64,000 nucleotides of DNA from Phragmites australis (taxonomy: Eukaryota > Streptophyta > Magnoliopsida > Poales > Poaceae): NCBI RefSeq assembly GCF_958298935.1, contig NC_084933.1:2153001-2217000 (forward strand), read 5' to 3'. A program made the translations under genes and the position numbers. This document shows positions 14,666-63,000 of the stretch, in pieces. The notes below the pieces were generated by a model that made no database searches, was not told the origin of the DNA, and saw only the letters and a list, made by a program, of their open reading frames with translations. How positions within the stretch are numbered: the first letter of the stretch is position 1; every line of letters starts with the position of its first letter.

Positions 14666-15795
14666 CTACGGGTAGAACCTGCGGAGGTGCTCGATGTTCC
14701 ATGGGTTGGGAAGCGGTTGCCCGTCTTCTGCCGCCAGCCTGAAAGAACCTTCTCGCGGGACCCCGATCACGGTGAAGGGACCCTCCCACATAGGGGATAG
14801 CTTATTCTTTCCTTCGCGCGACTGGACGCGTCGGAGAACTAGATCCCCCACATCAAAGGACCGTGCCCGGACGTGGCGCAGGTGGTAGCGCCGCAAGCTT
14901 TGCTGGTACCGAGCCGCCCCGACGGCGGCACGCCACCGGCACTCTTTCAGGTAGTCGACGTCGTCGCGCCTTTGCTGCTCTTGCTCACCCTCAGAATATG
15001 CATGCACCCGAGGGGAGCCTAGAGTGAGCTCGGAGGGGAGGACCGCCTCAGCGCCGTACACCAAGAAGAATGGGGTCTCCCCGGTGGCGCGGCTTGGCGT
15101 GGTCCGATTAGCCCATAGCACGGCAGGCAGCTCGTCCACCCATCCCTTCCCGTGCTTTGCGAGCACGTCATAGGTCCAGGTTTTGAGGCCCTTCAGTATC
15201 TCCGCGTTGGCGCGCTCGACTTGCCCGTTACTCCGAGGATGAGCGACGGAGGCGAAGCAGAGCTTGATGCCGAGGTCCTCGCAGTAGTCCCCGAATAGGG
15301 CACTCGTCAACTGGGTGCCATTGTCGGTGATGATCCGGTTCGGGACTCCGAAGCGACTGGTGATGCCGCGGATAAACTGGAGCGCCGTGTTCTTGGTCAC
15401 CTTGATGACTGGGACCGCCTCCAGCCACTTGGTGAACTTGTCGATGGCGACGTAGAGGTACTCATAGCCCCTGATTGCTCGCGGGAATAGACCCAGAATG
15501 TCTAACCCCCAGACCACGAAAGGCCATGACAGGGGGATGGTGTGAAGAGCCTGAGCTGGCTGGTGAATTTGCTTTGCGTGGAACTGGCACGCCCTGCAGC
15601 GCTGAACCAGCTCGGAAGCATCTTGGAGAGCTGTAGGCCAGTAGAAACCTTACCGGAAGGCCTTCCTGACCAGCGTGCGGAACGATGAATGGCCACCACA
15701 CTCGCCCTCGTGGATCTCAGCGAGAAGCTCGCCGCCTTCTGCCCGGGAGATGCATTTCAGGAGGACACCTCCTGCGCTACGCCGGTAGAGATCCC
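14666..15795 (-). pseudogene. Tat integrase (IN) domain
   Basis: Integrase joins element DNA to the host chromosome. The N-terminal zinc-binding region (HEGECGGH ... CRACQFHAK, about 15740-15570) precedes the catalytic core, uninterrupted from 15517: first Asp in YLYVAIDKFTKW, second in RIITDNGTQ, Glu in NGQVERANAE, so the DDE residues are present. The C-terminal end reads SPMWEGPFTVIGV and NPWNIEHLRRFYP. A TAA lies at about 15652 between zinc finger and core, and further stops lie upstream. The core would be functional-looking if translated alone, but not as part of a polyprotein. Confidence 0.85.
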
Positions 15796-31790: not shown

Positions 31791-34700
31791 TGTAACACCC
31801 TGATTTTCAAATTTTGTAATTCTCTAAAATTTTCCTAGATTTAATTTGAGTTTAAACAAATAGCATAGGATAAAACCTAATTTCTAAATTTAAATTCAAA
31901 TTTGAATTAGGATTATTATTTGTTTGAATGCATTCATGTTGGAGTTAGACATTTAGGTTTTTGTTTGGCTTGTTTGAATTGTTTGCTTGAGAATAGACTT
32001 AGCAAAGTTTAAATAATAGAAAATAGATTTGAAAAAAAGGGAAAGAAATAAAAAGAGAAAAAAAACCTAAGTCTACCAGGCCTCCCTTCTCTCCCTGACC
32101 CCTTCGGCCCAGCCTGCACCGGCCTGCTTCCTCCCTCCAGCCCGTTTCCCTTTTTCGGCCTGCCCAGCCCGCCTCTCCCGCCTCCCTCCCGCCTAGGCCG
32201 TGCCCCTGCTCCGGCCCAGCGCCTTGCGCCTGCGCGCCCGAGCCAGCCCAGCGCCATGCTGCCGCCCGCCGCTGAAGACGCTGCGCGTCGAGCCGCCTTC
32301 ACCCGAGTCGCCACCACGTGGGGCCCACACGTCGGAATCGTCTTCCACCCAGACTCCGCCGCCGTATCCGTGTCGATCCGCCGCCGCCTTTGAGAGTCCT
32401 GGCCCGTCCCGACCTCCTCTTGCCGCCTATATAACCCCGGCCGTCCCCCTTGGATCTCCCATCGCCAAAACCGCCGAAACCCGAGCCCAAATCGCCGAAT
32501 TCGAGCTCCCTGTCGCCATTAGCGCCGCAGCTTGGCTGCCCTCGCCGCTGCGTCGTTCCCGTGCCGCTTTGCCTCAATCTAGCCGCCTCCGAGCTTCACA
32601 GCAGCCCGCCGGAGCTCAAGCCGCCATCATCTTCGCCGTTTGGTCGCCAGAGCGCCCTCTCCGACGAAGACCCGAGCCCTCCGCCACCCCTCGTCGTCGC
32701 TAAGCCTCTCCGGTGCTGCGCCGCTCTCGGTAAGCCTCAAAACGGGTTCGCCGTCTCCTTCCCGTCGTATTCCGCCGCTCGTCGTCGTGCTCCGAGGCCG
32801 GCGACGAGGTTAGCACCCTTCTCCGGCGAAAGCTCCGCCGCTACCCCTCGGGCGCCGCCCTGTTCCTCCCCTCCGGCCGCCCGATCCGTCCTGTGCCGTC
32901 CGATCTAGTCCGAACGGCCGAGATTAGATCGCACCTATACCTCTTCAGTAGCCAGTAGCGAGTTGCCACGTGTCGCCTCTTTAAACACAGTCAGCGCCTT
33001 AGCCATGTCACCCTGCCACATCAGTGCCACATGTACGCCACATCAGCCATATGCCCAGTCATCTATCTAGTCAGCAATTCATCTTTTCCAGTACAAAGAT
33101 AATTCCTTTAATTGGTAATTTTGCAGAAAGACCCCTAGACTTTCTATAATTACCTATAAGCCCCTGTCTTTTTACAGTTTAGTCCCTAAACTTTTTCATA
33201 ATTACAAAAAGGTCCCTCTGTTTTTACAAAAAGGTCCCTATACCTTTCCATAATTACAATTAAGTCCTTTTCTTAATTAAAATAAACCCTAATCTTGTTT
33301 TTAGCATATCTTTTCCGTCGTAGCTCCGATTTAAGCGATTCTTGCGCCGATAGATTCGTTTCTCCGAGCTCTATCTTTCTAGATAGGTTTTGTCTTGTTG
33401 TTTCTCTTGTTTGTGCTATGTTCTTAGTATGTTTTGTTTGTGTGCTTTGCCGGTTATTGTGCGATTAGTCGTCAACGACCCGGATCAGTTTGAAGAATAT
33501 CAAGACCAGGAGCAAGAATACAATGAGCAGCAGCAAGGAGAAGGCAAGTGTCCTTGATCATATTGAACCTATGTTTTTAAATGTTTTGTTTTACAAAACT
33601 GCATGCAATGTCTGTCAATATGATGGGTAGTCACCTATGTTAGGGTTTTCCCTAGATTATCCCTTATCATCCCTTGGAACCCAGATGGTTTATGGTTAGG
33701 TGTCCTTTATGGGTAGATTGCTTAGCCATGCTTTTGGGATGTTGAGAAGTGTCATAATCTTGACTAATGAACATATGCAACAATGGTCGTTAATGTGTTA
33801 ATGGTCTAGCAACATGGAACCTTAGGCCTTGAGCAAAGTGGTTTCGATGGTCGTCATGGTTATGATGTTGATTTAGTGTTTGCTCAAGTAACCTAAGTAA
33901 GGATCGGTTCGTGGAGCGATAACCCGAGAAGCTCCGTACAAACACGAGACTGATATGGGAAGGCTTAGCCAATTAATTAGGGTTCTTTCAGTGTTGTGTG
34001 GGCCAGAGGGAAGGCGTGGATGAGAGAAGGTAATTCTCAGAAACCACATGGCACAAGAGGGGGCTTCTAGGTGGTAGCACCTAGCGGTGAAACCTGGAGT
34101 GTTGGTGACACATACTGGGAGAATTCTTTGTAAAGGCTTCGTAGTGATCTCCTGGCAACACACCACTGACGTGTGTATAATGCTTGGCCGGCATTGCAAC
34201 ATGGAGACTTTAGTCATCTGCTTGCAGGTGATGAAATCACGACTCGTGGGAAAGTTGTACAACCTCTACAGAGTGTAAAACTGTTATAACAGCCATGCTC
34301 ACAGATATGAGAGACTTGGATCCTCACATGATTAGATGGTGGTATGGTTTGGTCTTAGTACAGGGAGTACTAGATGGTGTGGTTTTGGTCTTAGTACAGG
34401 GAGTACTAGACGGTTGTGGTATGCAGGGTGGGGAACCATGTATGCTAGATGATGGATAGTTGGGTTACATTCATTTAATACTTGTCTAATGCTTTTGAGT
34501 CCAAATGTGTTTTTATTACTCGCATTTACGCAAATAATACCTTGTGTCAGCCTATCCTTGATATAAGCCTGCATGTCATTATTTTCCCACACTTGCTGAG
34601 TACATTATGTGCTCACCCTTGCTTTCTCCTATCAAAAACATATGCTGCTCAGTGGAAGACTTTCAAGACTTTCAAGATGACGACCTGGTGTTCTAGGAGC

Positions 34701-34941
34701 GTGTCTTCCAGTCGGTGCCTGTGGAGTGCTTGATCGCCGATGCTTTCGTTCCGCTGCCGTCGTTTAACAGTTATAGATTGGTTAGTTGAGTTGTTTAGGT
34801 GAAGACTTTGTGTAAGAGTTTGACGATTATAAGTAAAAGTATTGCTTTTGTTACTTCACCTATGACGTCCTTATGTGTGTTAAACTTCCTGGGCACACAT
34901 AAGCTGCACTTGGTTTTAGCCGTTAAAAACCGGGTGTGACA
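31791..34941 (+). mobile_element. Tekay/Del-type gypsy solo LTR
   Basis: 3,151 bp starting TGTAACACCC and ending GGGTGTGACA, flanked by the perfect 5-bp duplication TCCAT (31786-31790 and 34942-34946). Long LTRs starting TGT(A/C)ACACCC are typical of the Tekay chromovirus group. The right-hand Tekay LTR here ends in the same way on the minus strand. No internal region is present, so it arose by LTR-LTR recombination. It interrupts a GLR exon. Confidence 0.92.
32428..32434 (+). promoter_or_regulatory. TATA box of the solo LTR
   Basis: TATATAA sits about 640 bp into the LTR, within a GC-rich leader-like region, and a splice-donor-like CTCGGTAAGC follows near 32727. It is a plausible start of an LTR transcript that would read towards 34941, antisense to the GLR fragment. 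Confidence 0.5.
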
Positions 34942-52005: not shown

Positions 52006-53453
52006 TGTCGGAGGGTTAGCTCCTGTCGCGGGGATTCTGGGGGACCCCCTTTTGAGATTCAGCCGAGGGGATGATTCTGAGTCCGCCTTGCGATGTGTGG
52101 TTGATGAGAGTATGTGAGATGTAGGCGGGCGGATGCTGGTCGGATGGTTTGTAGAGATTTCACAGAGGATTTATACAGGTTCGGGCTGCACGGAGCGTAA
52201 TACCCTACTCCTGTGTCTGTCTAGTATATTATCGAGGCTTTTGGAATGCCTTTCTGAGGATCTGCTGTGTTACAATGGTTTTTGTCTAAGACTAGAGCTT
52301 CGATGTTCTTCGCCAGCTTATGGACTCGTCCCGGAAGAAGCCGATCTAGCTCCCGTTCTCCGGTTTGTCGAAGTCCTCCTCCCTCCCTGTCTCTGGGGAG
52401 CCCGCCCCTCTTTTATACCCGTCGGGGCAGGTAGCGTGCCCAGAAAGGATTGGCGCAAGTTCCAAGGCGCCATAAATGGAAAGCAACCATAATGGGCTGC
52501 AGCTTGAGGTGATAGGGAGTTGAAAACGCGTCCCCGTCTGGTCTGTTCGTCATCATGTCGTTCTGCAACGGGCGCCGCGGGGAGGGCTCACCGGGCAGCC
52601 ACCGAGCAGCCCAGCGTGCCCGTTTGGTCAGAGCATGTCTGACATAGCAGGGCGGCAAGCGGGGCGCCTTGGGCCTCACGATGTTATCCTGAGGCGCGCC
52701 GGATGACGCGGGATGGGACCCGTGCATTAAATGTCCCCACGCCTCTCTGCCAGGCCGTGGCAGGGACTGACAGCAAGCGTGGTGGAGCAGTTGGAAGTGA
52801 TAGGCCACGCGCCCTCTTAAATGCGGCATCGGGCCTTTCACTGGTTGACACCTCACCGCTGGACCTCTGTGGGGGCCACCGGCGAAGGACTTCTGAGGTC
52901 GTCGAGGAACCGAGTGCTCGGGGTCCACTGTTCACGGCCCCGAGCACTCTCTCCCGGAATTGGCTGTTCGGGTCCTCGGGGAACCGAGTGCTCGGGGGCC
53001 ACTGTTCACGACCCCGAGCACTCTCTCCCGGGACTGACTTCCCTTGGGTCCTCGGGGGACTCGGGTGCTCGGGGGCCATTGTTCGCAGCCCCGAGCACCC
53101 CCTTCCCGGTACTTGGCTTTTCTGGTCGTCGGGGGACTTGAGTGCTCGGGGGCCACCGTTCACGGCCCCGAGCACTCTCTTCCCGGCACTTGGTCTACTT
53201 GGGTCATCGGGGAACTCGGGTACTCGGTGACCACTGTTCATGGTCCCGAGCACCCTCTCTCGGGACTTGTACTTCTTATTGGGTCCTCAGGGAACTCGGG
53301 TGCTCGGGGGCCACTATTCATGGCCCCGAGCACCCTCTCCCGGGACTTGGTCTTCTCAGACCTCGGGGAAAAGTCCCCGAGGGAAGGCGCCACGTGGCAC
53401 CGCGCTGTCCTGGCCTCGGGACTCGGGGACCCCCAGTTCCCATGTCGCCGACA
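52006..53453 (-). repeat. 3' LTR of the second Tat copy
   Basis: 1,448 bp, TGTCGG...CCGACA. It has six minisatellite units with GTGCTCGGGGG/CCCCGAGCAC (about 52914, 52988, 53063, 53141, 53218, 53300) against five in the first Tat. Confidence 0.88.
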
Positions 53454-55808: not shown

Positions 55809-56807
55809 TCAACCGACGAAGGCAATGGTGTGCTCGGGCTCTTGAAACCCGAGCTCATCATTTTCGGGGGCGGCTTTGCGGTCACCACCCTCGTGATGCT
55901 CCTCGCACTCCCTCTGGTATTGCTGCGCGAGACCCTTCACCGACCAGCACTGGGTGAGATCGTGCAAGTCGGTATGGTGGATTTCGCACCATTTTCCTGC
56001 CTCTGGCCCTGCGGGAGCTGGCTTTTTCTTGACAGCTGCTCGGCGCGCCAGCCTGTGGGCGGCGCCTTCCGCCGGCAGGACAGGGGCAGCGTAGTGTTTC
56101 TTCTTCTTTTTCTTTTTCCGCTCATCGGAACGGGAAGGACCTGCTTCGTCGGCCGCGGCTTGCTCAGGGCGCGGAACGTGCAACGCCCGAGCTTCCGCGG
56201 CCTTGGCGCACTTGTCGGCCAGCACGAAGAGCTCCGCGGTGGTCTCGACCTCGTGCGTGCCTAGCTTCTTGAGCATCCGCTCGTCGCGGACGCCCTGTTG
56301 GAAGGCGATGATGACAGCATGGTGGGTGATCCGCGGGATGGTGTTGCGGACCCAGTTGAAACGTTGTATGAAGCGCCTCAGCGTCTCTCCCGCTTGTTGC
56401 TTCACGGCATGGAGGTCGCTCTCCAAGCCGGGGCGCGTGAAGGTGCCCTGAAAATTGGCAACGAATTGGTGGCACAGATCATCCCAGGAGCCAATGGATC
56501 CTGGGGGTAAGTTCATGAGGCAAGAGCGGGCAGAGCCGCTCAAGGCCACGTGAAAGTAGTTGGCCATGACCTTTTCGTTCCCGCCCGCCGCCTGGATGGC
56601 GGTGGTGTAGATCTGGAGGAACTCGATGGGGTCGATGGAGCCGTCGTACTGCTTCGGCAGATGGGGCTGGAACTTTGTGGGCCAGTTGACCCGGCAGAGC
56701 TCGCTGGCGAATGCACGGCAGCCCGTGCCGTATCCCACGGTGCCGGCCGTGCCCCTGGGGGGCGAACGCCGGCGCGCTAGGGAACCCCGGCGGTCGTGGG
56801 CCGGCAA
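55809..56807 (-). CDS. Tat gag fragment, 332 open codons
   Basis: Contains the gag core [32 protein letters not shown] and [14 protein letters not shown], continues [20 protein letters not shown] and [19 protein letters not shown], then a poly-lysine block ([12 protein letters not shown]) and the zinc-like [15 protein letters not shown], ending [10 protein letters not shown]. Unlike the first Tat gag it has no internal stop. The first methionine in this frame is inside gag, and the true N-terminus was lost at the Tekay junction. Confidence 0.75.
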
Positions 56808-56837: not shown

Positions 56838-56873
56838 GCAAATCTTTGATGCGAGGCAAATCTTTGATGCGAG
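56838..56873. repeat. 18-bp direct duplication at the Tat/Tekay junction
   Basis: GCAAATCTTTGATGCGAG occurs twice in a row (56838-56855 and 56856-56873), encoding PRIKDL twice on the minus strand. The left neighbour is Tat gag; the right is Tekay RT. Confidence 0.9.
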
Positions 56874-57663
56874 GCAAGGGGTACTTGTTCTTAATGGTCA
56901 CCTCATTAAGTGCATGATAATTAATGCACATTCTGTGAGTCCCATCCTTTTTTGGCACAAAGATAATTGGGGCTCCCTAGGGCGAGGTACTGGGGCAAAT
57001 AAACCCATTATCTAATAGGTCTTGGATTTGCTCCTTGAGTTCAGACAACTGATTGGTATCCATTCCGTACGGTCTCTTATATATGGGAGCAGTGGTAGGT
57101 ACTAATTCAATAACAAACTCAATGTCTCGGTCTGGTGGCATACCTGACAACTCTTCAGGGAAGACATTCGGGAATTCACTGATTACTCTGACTTCCCCCA
57201 CTGCCTTGGCCTGGTTGAGCTTGATATTCTCTCTTGATGCTATTGTGGCTTTGAACTCTACCTTGGTGCCACATGTGTGTGTCAACTGAACTGTCTTGGT
57301 GGCGCATCCTATCACTCCATTAAACTTAGCCAACCAATCCATTCCCAGAATAATTTCTATCCCTTTGGACTCCAAGACAATAATGTTTGCAGGGAATTCC
57401 ACCCCTTTAATGGCAAGGATTATCTTAGGGCATACATGCCTCGATTCCATTTCTCCGCCTTGAGAACTGACTATCAACCAACTTTTCATTATGGCTATCG
57501 ACCGACTATGCTTTTCTACGAACTTAGTTGAGATAAAGGAATATGTTGCTCCAGAATCGAATAAAATTGTAGCGGGGTGAGAGTTGGCGGGGAACATACC
57601 AAGTACCACATTTGGGGCATCCTGGGCATCCTCTGTTGCAACGTGGTTCACTCGCCCACTCAT
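56874..57663 (-). pseudogene. Tekay protease and reverse transcriptase N-terminus
   Basis: The protease has the active site TILFDSGATYSFIS and ILGMDWLAKFNG. RT follows: SEFPNVFPEELSGMPPDRDI, APIYKRPYGM, ELKEQIQDLLDNGFICPSTS and, after a frame change near 56980, [20 protein letters not shown] and [12 protein letters not shown], where the sequence ends at the junction. The RT catalytic YxDD is missing. Confidence 0.85.
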
Positions 57664-58640: not shown

Positions 58641-59132
58641 TCTTGCCATGGCCTGTGCCAGTTCCTACAGAATCTGGGTCTGCACAGCCATCATCTGCAT
58701 TGGGTCCACTGGGTTCCGATTAGTCCGCCTGTTCCGTGAGGGAAACATGTCCTAGTTGTCATCCTGGGGGTGAGCATTGGGGTTGCTGCCTTTGGTGTTG
58801 TTCCTATTAGTGCCAGCATTGTTCGCATTCCTCACATTCACCATCTGACGGTTGCAAGAACATGAGATCCGAAAATGAGAACAGGGCAAGGATAGATGAA
58901 GCATGACGAAGAACTCATAAGCTGATATCTATATATCGAAGATGGATACAACTGCGAAAGACAAACTTTTACATCACACCGACACACACAAAGCAAACCT
59001 AACACACAAGTTGACAGATCGAAAGCAAACAGGTTCATTACATCATAAAACAAATGACTCTAAACGATGCTAAACTGCTACTATTGGAAAATTGCTAGCT
59101 CAGGAACTGTCGCCACCCTCAGAAAGGTCCTA

Positions 59133-59848
59133 TGGTGCAACACGTAGAGCGGCGTCGAGGCGGAGCTTCTTGCAGGAGGGAGAGCGGGGCAACTTTGGCT
59201 CAAGCATCTCCTCTGGTTCCTCCTCTGAGTCATCACTCATCATAGCCAGAAGGGTGTGAATCCTCTCCTCTGTCTCAGCGAGCCTCAGGTGCACGTCATC
59301 TAGCTTGTCAAGGGCTCTATCCAGCTCCTGAGTCAAGGTGTCGGTGAGGTGAACCTGCTCCATCAGTTTGGCATCACCCTCCCTGTTGGTGCCGATAAAG
59401 GTGACCTCCAAGCTGTCACTCCTACGCTACGGGTAGAAGCTGTACTGCGGTAGTCTAAATAGTGTTATGGTACTCTGCGTAGATGACTGAAAGTGCCTGG
59501 TAAGCTGTGTCACAGATCCTAGCTGCAAGGGTCTCTCTCAGTGCGAGGGCTGAATGGATCCCACGCACCCTGTGGCCATCCTCGTCCGGGCGCTTCTCAA
59601 AGATGATCACCTCCACCATCCAAGCGTAGCCATGGTCGCTGAGTGGGGTCCTCATTCCCTTGTAGACCAGGGCCTTCTGATAACCCAAACCCTCGAGGAT
59701 CGTCCAAAGCTTGCGGGAACTCCCCTGCCTGAAGTCTAGAAGAGTGAAACTCTACGGGCGGCTGGAACGCCCAGGTGGTCTCTGTGGGAGCTCTAGCTGG
59801 AACAAAACCACCGGTGCTCCTGTGGGGCGTCTGCTTCGTACGGGCCAT
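59133..59848 (-). pseudogene. Tekay upstream ORF with histone-H3-tail-like N-terminus
   Basis: The ATG at 59848 starts MARTKQTPHRSTGG and continues FVPARAPTETTW. Counting after Met, 11 of 16 positions equal the histone H3 tail (ARTKQT, S10, T11, G12, G13, P16), with K4 kept and K9 replaced by R. After a frame change near 59690 it reads GYQKALVYKGMRTPLSDHGY, ALALRETLAARICDTAYQAL and, after stops, a coiled coil (LTQELDRALDKLDDVHLRLA) with an acidic end (MMSDDSEEEPEEM). It lies between PBS and gag. Similar upstream ORFs occur in grass gypsy elements as I recall, but the function is unknown. Confidence 0.65.
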
Positions 59849-60037
59849 CTAAAAGTTTTGGAAGAGAGAGAGAGAGGAGTTAGTAACCATTTGTCAAAAT
59901 TTTATAAACAACGGCAATAGAAAGAAGAACAGAAATGAAACAGGTAGAGTAAAACATTTTCAGAAATTAGTTTTTAACAGAGATATGTTCTTTATAAGGA
60001 CCATTTCTAGCTAGGCTTGCGTCCTGCGGTCAAAACG

Positions 60038-60049
60038 GCTCTGATACCA
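60038..60049 (-). promoter_or_regulatory. Tekay primer binding site (Met-tRNA)
   Basis: The minus strand reads TGGTATCAGAGC four bases after the LTR end. 59849-60037 is the untranslated leader. Confidence 0.85.
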
Positions 60050-60053
60050 CCTC

Positions 60054-63000
60054 TGTCACACCCAGCTTCAAAAGAACAAACTAGATGCATTTCACATGTA
60101 TGTCAGTATCAAGTTTCATACATGCAGTGACTTCATAAGTGATAACATAATAGTGTCATTACATAACGATAAGATTCATGACAAAAGGACACGTAGGTCT
60201 TAACAAAATATTAAGATAACTTCCAGCGGTTGCAGGTCTTCCATCCATCCACAGGCATTGTCCGGGGAAGCGCCAGCCTAGAACATGGTCTTCAGGTCGA
60301 AGACTTCCTTTGCCTAGAACTCAGTTTCGATCATCTGGGACGTCCTCGAAGTCTTCACCTTCTGAGCAGTATCAAGAGGTTGGGAGAAGGCAAGCATGAG
60401 TACATGGAGTACTCAGTAAGTGTGGGAAAATATGACATGAAGGCTTAAGGCAAGAAAGGCTCGACTCAGGTTGATTGCATCTATGCCATCCTAATCTAGG
60501 ACTCAAAAAGGACTTAGAAACTCTATTTACTATGTGTGACGATACCAACATTAGAGGAAAAGCTCATCAGATTCCATCCGACTACCAGACTCACCAGATA
60601 TCTCATATCCGGTAACAATGGCGCTCCCCGGATTCCGATGAAAGTGCAGCTTGGGCCCACCAACGTTGGGGGGTGACACGTGACCAGCAATCAATTGGCA
60701 AGTATCCTGAAGAGACGCAAGGAGTATCAAGCGATCCATCCTGCTGAACATGCTCTCTCAAGAGGGAAGGCAGCTGGCATTGATCATTGCATGGCTGGCG
60801 ACCTACCCCAGGGGACTTCCTTTGTCTCCAATAATGAGGTGGTGCAACCACGCTTGGAGCACAAGGTTGATCTTGCTGCTGCTCTTAATAGTTGAAGCGT
60901 TCCAAGTCATGTCCTGTGTTGAAACATTTATTATACCAGTCTCCGGATCAGTCACTGGTAAATAAGAGTCTTACAATAGGTCAAACCATAATCATACAAC
61001 AAAGAAAGTAGTGAAATAACTCCACAAGGTGAATAAAATATATAACACTACACAACAGTGCACGAACAAGAGAGTCCATGACATCAGAGTGCACGACAGG
61101 GACATCCTAATGAACACGCCACTCTACAGGTAACTCGGGTGCGGACGCAACCGAGACCTACTCATTAGCTTCACCGTCGACGTCGGTGAAAACTGGATCC
61201 TCCTCTGAAAACACAAGCAAGGGTGAGTACAAACGTACTCAGTAAGTCCCAACCCTTGCCCTACATCAAGGGGGTATAAATATATGCATATGGAATAATA
61301 AGTATAAAGCTGTAAGGTTAACTTTTGCGGAAAACCAGAGTTTACACATGTAATGTTCATTTTATAAGGCGGTGTTTATGAAAACAACATATCAATATCA
61401 TTAAGTGAAGGGGGTTTTTGGGCCAAGATGCAAATCACCAAGGCTCAAATTCTAATGTTACCAGACACTTTGGCTGTAGCAACTCACGGCACACTGCCGA
61501 ACCTATTTTCCCAAAACCGGGCACACCCTACCCACTCATACTCTAAGGGTACATACGCAACCCATGCTAGTTGTTGTGACTGAACCGTAGTTCGTCCATG
61601 ACCGTGGACACGACTATTTGAATAGTTTTACCTTTACAGAGTGGTACACTTTACCACCAAGCTGAGTTTGACAACATACCACCGTCGTGGAAATGCGACT
61701 CAACAAAACCATTACCCACCCAAGCATCATCCTACTAACCACCTACGGGAGCTAACCAGGGGTTATTGACCTTTCACTAGGCCTCCAACCGGGTCAACAA
61801 GCTTGCACCTACTTGCACCTGCTACATGGCCTCCCATTGCACACCTACGTTCGGACGACTAGTAGACTAGCTGGCGGGGTTTAGACTATGCCCTACCACA
61901 AATGGGGTCGAGTAGCTGTACTATAAAGACTAGGTAGGATGTCATATCAACTTGATCCTTAAATGAGCCAAGGCAAACATCTCCACACTGAGCCTACCAC
62001 ACAGGCAACACCCAAACTCCTAGGGCATTCCCCACGGGAACCCTGATTTGCCCTAGCTCTAACAGGTTCTCAGTTGTTATCATTATCCAATAAGTCTTCC
62101 CATCCCACAACCCACGAAACACCAAGGCACCAAGTTTCACCCATTTCGCAAAACTAAATGTGATTAAGCACAAGGTAAAATTAAGAGTACAGTCCTAAGC
62201 ATACTAGCAACAAGGTGATCATCTTCGCGTAAATAAAGTAGCCGAGATGAAAGTCCTAGGGTTACCAAGATTATACTCAGGTTGGTCACAAATAGGCTGG
62301 CTAATCTACAATAGGACATAACTAGCTCAATAGTTTAAATTATGCTAATAAGTAATACTTCATACAATCATTTGGTGGAAAACGACTGCTACAGGTTGTG
62401 GTGACAAATTCTGGGTTCAATATGATCAACAAGGGAAGCAGATCGGGACTTGCCTTCGTTGAAGTCCTCGAGAGGGTCCTGCTTCAAATACTGCATTCCC
62501 GGCTCCTCCTCTTCTACGAACTCTCTGGTTTCTAAAACGTGGCACAAAAACAACACAAACACATAATTAAATACAAATAAAATAGAAATAAATATGAAAC
62601 TAATATGAAAAGATAGGACTTGAGTTTAGATGAATATTGATAGAGGAATTATTGAAATCGGAGTCAAAATGGAGGGGAGCTTCGGAAGTTGGCCGACAGA
62701 TTAAATTGAGAAAAAGAAAATGGGAGAATATTACCTGGAATATTCTATGGAAAATTGGATTTTTAGGAAAAAGAGAAATGCTATTGTGCATTTGGGTTTG
62801 GTTAATGTGCTAGGCTTTGGCGGGTTCTACGGCTTCTGGGCCGGCCTGCAAGCCAAGGGGGCCCAATCCGGCCTGAGGGAGGGCGACAGCGGGAGACGGC
62901 GGAGTGGTTGGGGCACGAAGGCGTGGGGCTGTCCGCGGCGGGGGCTCACTGGGAAGCTCGCCGCCGGCAGTTCTGGGCCTCAAGCTGGACGGGGAGATGG

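What the first reader, a model, noticed from the sequence alone, without database searches (positions are those of the whole stretch)
59800..59848. Retrotransposon ORF whose N-terminus copies the histone H3 tail
The minus-strand ORF just inside the Tekay PBS begins ARTKQTPHRSTGG after Met. Without gaps, 11 of the first 16 residues equal histone H3, including A1, R2, T3, K4, Q5, T6, S10, T11, G12, G13 and P16. K9 is R. Chance similarity of this kind right at a start codon is unlikely. A protein from a chromovirus (a group whose integrase normally reads chromatin marks) that presents an H3-like tail could bind or be modified by H3K4 readers, writers or erasers, or bind karyopherins. I cannot tell whether this has been described.
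Basis: partly seen in the sequence, partly recalled or inferred. Interest (0 to 1): 0.88.

Follow-up and report, generated by a model that had tools for sequence, protein, structure and literature searches.

The report
Decayed retrotransposon ORF with histone-H3-like start
A broken copy of a plant jumping gene carries an extra protein gene whose first 16 residues closely copy the tail of histone H3; the likeness looks real rather than accidental, but extra genes of this type are known in grasses and whether the tail does anything is untested.

Summary
On the minus strand, 201 nt from the start of an initiator-Met-type PBS, an ORF starts MARTKQTPHRSTGGFVP: 11 of 16 residues equal H3 1-16, and codons 0-16 are at least 7 of 51 base changes from an H3 coding sequence. 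The next best of 2,321 ATGs in the window matches 6 of 16. The likeness stops after residue 16. The start codon directly follows a splice-acceptor-like sequence.

The copy is dead: the ORF lies in three frames, with in-frame stops after the middle piece, and gag is broken. Position and piece order fit the 5' extra ORF (ORF0, 5'aORF) of grass Tekay elements (PMC3485330, PMC11728184; passages). I recall the abstract of a 2011 Genetica survey reporting partial histone H3 similarity for some of these; that paper is not held.

Most likely the tail descends from a captured host H3 gene start. Histone mimicry by intact relatives is plausible but untested. No relative could be compared: the collections searched gave none, even for the protease, and the genome search did not complete in 14 tries. 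New member of a known kind; moderate interest.

The parts
60054..60678 (-). Probable 5' LTR: candidate start TGTCACCCCC at 60678, end GGGTGTGACA at 60054
   Evidence: Read from sequence; no second LTR found, so the 60678 boundary is a guess
60037..60049 (-). Primer binding site TGGTATCAGAGCC (initiator-Met type; the tRNA assignment is recalled)
59849..59885 (-). Splice-acceptor-like stretch: TACTAAC, CT-rich tract, TTTTAG, ending directly at the ORF0 ATG
   Evidence: not tested on RNA
59798..59848 (-). Met plus 16 H3-like residues (11 of 16 identical to H3 1-16)
59597..59848 (-). ORF0 N piece as an open frame, 83 aa; family frame probably only to about 59675, the rest after a frameshift
59458..59688 (-). 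ORF0 middle piece in another frame, 77 aa; strands then helix in a weak model; in-frame stops follow
59130..59411 (-). ORF0 C piece in the third frame: 49-residue helix, acidic stretch, stop codon
57752..58844 (-). Broken gag: candidate ATG at 58844, frames interrupted, Retrotrans_gag match within 58324-57752
56977..57663 (-). Aspartic protease (RVP_2) and, by eye, the start of reverse transcriptase
   Evidence: protease; RT start by eye only, no Pfam match for 56851-56976

Best explanation
This is a dead copy of the 5' extra ORF (ORF0 / 5'aORF) of a grass Tekay-type chromovirus. Its first 16 residues most likely descend from the coding start of a host histone H3 gene taken up by the element, next to a 3' splice site that ends at the ATG; the rest of the protein (middle alpha/beta piece, long helix, acidic end) is not histone. 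Most likely working in intact relatives, at about 0.35 for this step alone: the protein is made from a spliced RNA lacking the PBS and the upstream ATGs, loses its Met, exposes A1-R2-T3-K4 and docks on chromatin factors that hold the unmodified H3 N-terminus. Shown here: H3-like start, gene order, splice-like site, decay. Inferred: family membership by sequence, capture, splicing, docking.
For: 11/16 identity and 7 of 51 minimal base changes, far outside the window's ATG background. A7P, R8H and K9R are each one base from GCC, CGC and AAG, so part of the difference may be decay of this copy. The likeness ends sharply: codons 17-56 average 1.85 changes per codon against a null of 1.61. Splice-acceptor-like stretch ending at the ATG; 5'UTR introns exist in Arabidopsis replacement H3 genes (passage in PMC7247714). 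ORF0 upstream of gag-pol in Retrosat2-type elements of rice, maize, sorghum and Brachypodium (PMC3485330, abstract and passages). Grass Tekay 5'aORF proteins with alpha/beta parts, predicted nuclear location and, in maize Tekay and Sb7, a long C-terminal helix (PMC11728184, section 9); here the C piece gives a 49-residue helix, 37 residues at pLDDT 90 or more. Recalled, not seen: Steinbauerova et al. 2011, Genetica 139:1543, abstract: chromovirus extra ORFs are 5', in Poaceae, part of them with partial similarity to histone H3.
Against: No relative was compared: protein set, viral contigs (16, 56, 57, 58) and genome contigs (17, 77) gave none; this is uninformative, since a protease control also found nothing and a query sharing three 5-mers with H3 did not bring up H3 itself (15). 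PMC3485330, PMC11728184 and PMC7264820 have no occurrence of 'histone' in their main text. PMC3485330 reports that ORF0 proteins of Retrosat2 and Sorsat2 share only about 10% and that BLAST finds no ORF0 hit outside Oryza, so an H3 start need not be a family trait; it also proposes metabolic functions for ORF0. K9 and K14 are changed here. A splice site could serve the element without any capture. No grass H3 gene could be fetched to test capture. Tekay membership rests on PBS, LTR end, gag-protease and position.
Confidence: 0.62

Rival explanations
1. Captured H3 start kept only as a passenger: the origin is as in the best explanation, but the tail has no histone-mimic function and merely supplies a start codon and splice site.
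For: Likeness limited to 16 residues, K9 and K14 changed, splice site directly at the ATG, fast-evolving ORF0 proteins (PMC3485330 passages).
Against: A1-T6 and S10-G13 are intact at residue level in a copy that is otherwise badly decayed, which hints at constraint before decay; not a test.
Confidence: 0.35
2. Convergent mimic: selection shaped an unrelated N-terminus into an H3-like tail, without capture of an H3 gene.
For: Only the tail resembles H3 and the likeness stops at residue 16; short tail mimics are known elsewhere (recalled).
Against: Base-level distance is small even at the changed residues 7, 8, 9 and 15 (one base each), which convergence does not require.
Confidence: 0.15
3. Chance likeness at the start of a meaningless or unrelated ORF.
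For: H3 was picked after the fact, many ORFs are read in a genome scan, and no relative could be shown to share the start.
Against: 3.3e-11 per ATG and 7.6e-8 in the window; next best ATG 6/16; placed at the first long ORF after the PBS.
Confidence: 0.07

Closest known systems
ORF0 of Retrosat2 / RIRE3 / RIRE8 / FRetro3 (Oryza) and of ZMsat2, Sorsat2, Brasat2 (PMC3485330, abstract and passages)
   Same: Extra ORF between 5' LTR and gag-pol in grasses; similar LTR terminus (TGTCACACCC there)
   Different: LTRs there exceed 3 kb, here probably about 0.6 kb; no mention of histone; sequence relation not tested
5'aORF of maize Tekay and sorghum Sb7 (PMC11728184, section 9 and passages; taken from Steinbauerova et al. 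2011)
   Same: Position; alpha/beta part followed by a long C-terminal helix
   Different: Their letters were not available; 'histone' does not occur in that paper's main text; it reports a weak structural likeness to a DRBM protein, which my poor model neither shows nor excludes
Chromovirus extra ORFs of Poaceae with partial histone H3 similarity (Steinbauerova et al. 2011, abstract recalled only)
   Same: Host group, position, kind of similarity
   Different: Paper not held; cannot say whether the similar part is this tail
Histone H3 N-terminal mimics such as influenza NS1, SNAG-domain factors and PCLAF (recalled)
   Same: Short H3-like peptide in a non-histone protein
   Different: Binding is established there; here nothing is tested and the copy is dead

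Membership tests
Grass Tekay 5' extra ORF (ORF0/5'aORF) | ORF between PBS and gag, same strand as gag | tested here: met
   PBS 60049, ORF pieces 59848-59130, gag domain in 58324-57752, all on the minus strand
Grass Tekay 5' extra ORF (ORF0/5'aORF) | alpha/beta part and long C-terminal helix (maize Tekay, Sb7) | tested here: inconclusive
   C piece: 49-residue helix fits; middle piece model weak, pLDDT 60.6, no convincing fold match
Grass Tekay 5' extra ORF (ORF0/5'aORF) | sequence similarity to known members | not testable with these tools
   No plant element letters reachable; the genome search did not complete
Tekay/Del chromovirus | RT in the Tekay clade; integrase with type II chromodomain | tested here: inconclusive
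   Element is cut inside RT near 56850; of 17 ORF stretches scanned with Pfam one has an integrase core (14669-15649), which I assign to another element; no chromodomain seen
Ty3/gypsy LTR retrotransposon | LTR end, PBS, gag, protease | tested here: met
   second LTR not found
Histone H3 | H3 sequence and histone fold beyond the tail | tested here: not met
   likeness ends at residue 16; no Pfam match for the N piece or middle piece
Functional H3 tail mimic | binding to, or modification by, H3 readers, writers or erasers | not testable with these tools
   needs peptide assays

The most novel reading that the evidence does not exclude
A clade of grass chromoviruses keeps, under selection, a captured H3 tail on a spliced nuclear accessory protein and uses it to occupy H3K4me0 readers or H3-tail enzymes, either to blunt silencing or to steer insertion, alongside an integrase chromodomain.
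Probability: 0.25. Interest if true: 0.85.

Novelty: new member of a known kind. Interest (0 to 1): 0.43.

Why it matters
If the tail is kept in intact grass elements, a retrotransposon would be presenting a histone signal to the host's own chromatin readers. That would give a handle on how chromoviruses deal with silencing and target choice, and a testable role for ORF0, whose function is unsettled. As it stands the window gives one decayed copy, plus a splice-acceptor-like site that suggests how the protein could be expressed.

Tried and rejected

The LTR-like stretch at 34549-34941 as the 3' LTR of this element: rejected, it matches in the opposite orientation.

Relatives: protein set (12: 3 candidates, none at E<=10; 15: no candidate; 61: 36 candidates, none), viral contigs (16, 56, 57, 58) and genome contigs (17, 77) gave none. 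A protease query as a control also found no plant element (56, 77), so this absence says nothing.

Papers: ten searches. No title or abstract start listed describes an H3-like retrotransposon start. Of 14 papers opened, passages were seen in all, the outline and abstract of PMC3485330, and section 9 of PMC11728184; none was read whole. The recalled source is not in the library.

Full report
Observation. The minus-strand ORF at 59848..59597 starts MARTKQTPHRSTGGFVPARAPT. Against H3 residues 1-16 it has 11 identities; the five differences are A7P, R8H, K9R, K14F and A15V. Among 2,321 ATGs on both strands of the window no other exceeds 6 of 16, and the modelled chance per ATG is 3.3e-11. At base level the first 17 codons are at least 7 changes from some H3 coding sequence; the 2,321 ATGs average 25.8 with sd 2.7, next best 14. 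A phmmer search of PDB chains matched 79 sequences; all 60 shown are H3 or H3 peptides, but with E 0.12 at best, as expected for so short a match. H3 was chosen after the fact; allowing for ten thousand other notable N-termini the expectation in this window would be about 1e-3 (my arithmetic).

Surroundings. Upstream on the same strand lie an LTR end GGGTGTGACA and TGGTATCAGAGCC, the primer binding site, starting at 60049, 201 nt before the ATG. Downstream lie gag (PF03732 in 58324-57752, E 4.8e-10) and protease (RVP_2 in 57663-56977, E 9.9e-42). By eye the reverse transcriptase begins and is cut near 56850; Pfam does not recognise that short remnant. Gag of another gypsy element follows (55809-56807). 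Seventeen ORF stretches of the window were scanned with Pfam (5, 8, 4). One, at 14669-15649, has an integrase core; I assign it to another element because RT and RNase H pieces precede it on the same strand (inference). No chromodomain and no second LTR in the right orientation were seen. The Tekay label therefore rests on general features.

State of the copy. The extra ORF runs through three frames: the H3-like N piece, a middle piece at 59688-59458 followed by in-frame stops, and a C piece at 59411-59130. Gag is broken as well. This copy makes no full protein. Eleven of 16 may understate the likeness of an intact relative: A7P, R8H and K9R are each one base from GCC, CGC and AAG, and CGC to CAC is what loss of a methylated CpG gives (inference).

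What the ORF is. An extra ORF in this place is known from grasses. PMC3485330 (abstract and passages) describes ORF0 upstream of gag-pol in Retrosat2, FRetro3, RIRE3 and RIRE8 of rice and in maize, sorghum and Brachypodium homologues; [quoted passage not shown] It also reports about 10% similarity between the ORF0 proteins of Retrosat2 and Sorsat2, no BLAST hit for ORF0 in the non-rice genomes searched, and a proposal that ORF0s are metabolic enzymes, none of which points to a shared H3 start. PMC11728184 (passages and section 9) describes Tekay 5'aORFs: in grasses with an alpha/beta part, predicted nuclear location and, in maize Tekay and Sb7, a long C-terminal helix; and an unrelated one in sunflower. 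The C piece here gives a 49-residue helix with 37 residues at pLDDT 90 or more, followed by an acidic stretch. The middle piece gives strands then a helix, but with mean pLDDT 60.6 and no convincing fold match. From recall, the abstract of Steinbauerova et al. (Genetica 139:1543, 2011) says that chromovirus extra ORFs occur only in 5' regions of elements of Poaceae and that part of them show partial similarity to the histone H3 gene. The paper is not held, and no held paper that I opened repeats the statement, so this rests on memory.

A possible expression route. The ATG directly follows TACTAAC, a CT-rich tract and TTTTAG (59885-59849), the look of a 3' splice site. In the window 4 of 2,324 ATGs follow TAG or CAG with at least 21 pyrimidines in 30, and of two TACTAAC-to-YAG stretches this is the only one followed by ATG. 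Three ATGs lie between PBS and this one, each opening a frame of 13 to 25 residues; splicing would remove them along with the PBS. One donor-like site is seen at 60361 in the probable LTR. The candidate gag ATG at 58844 also follows CAG directly, with 20 of 30 pyrimidines. Replacement H3 genes of Arabidopsis carry 5'UTR introns (passage in PMC7247714), so a captured H3 gene start could have brought its own acceptor. None of this was tested on RNA, and no grass H3 gene could be fetched for comparison.

Mechanism. The likeness ends at residue 16 (codons 17-56: 1.85 changes per codon, null 1.61), and no histone domain follows. A captured H3 gene start joined to an unrelated accessory protein explains this best. 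In an intact relative, removal of Met before Ala (established knowledge for such N-termini) would expose A1-R2-T3-K4, the part that H3K4me0 readers and LSD1-type enzymes hold (recalled). I give about 0.35 to such docking. A tail kept only as a passenger that brings start codon and splice site is an equal rival on present evidence. The change of K9 and K14, if shared by relatives, would argue against H3K9 methylation or K9/K14 acetylation as the point of the mimic.

Limits. No relative could be compared. The protein set returned no homologue, not even H3 itself for a query sharing three 5-mers with it, so it seems not to hold plants; viral and genome contigs returned no plant element even for the protease. 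The genome search did not answer in 14 tries.

Noticed in passing
window 58844 (-): The candidate gag start codon also directly follows CAG with a moderately pyrimidine-rich stretch (20 of 30), so both ORF0 and gag may be reached by splicing.
   Followed up: partly
window 34549-34941 (+): LTR-like stretch ending in TGTGACA at 34941, 73% identical over 154 columns to the probable LTR of the ORF0 element, opposite orientation. It abuts sequence (35394-34942, -) that reads like a plant bHLH gene remnant, with only a sub-cutoff Pfam match to the bHLH ACT-like domain (E 0.054).
   Followed up: partly
window 56850-56976 (-): Junction inside the reverse transcriptase start, with a short repeated PRIKDL, followed by gag of another gypsy element (by eye).
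   Followed up: no
window 61190-61260 (-): A second Tekay-like LTR motif (GAGTACGTTTGTACTCACC ... TTTTCAGAGGAGGA) upstream of the probable LTR, suggesting insertion into an older related element (by eye; the motif is recalled).
   Followed up: no
window 52888-53353 (+): Six imperfect tandem copies of 80 nt, spacing 74-80, in GC-rich sequence.
   Followed up: no
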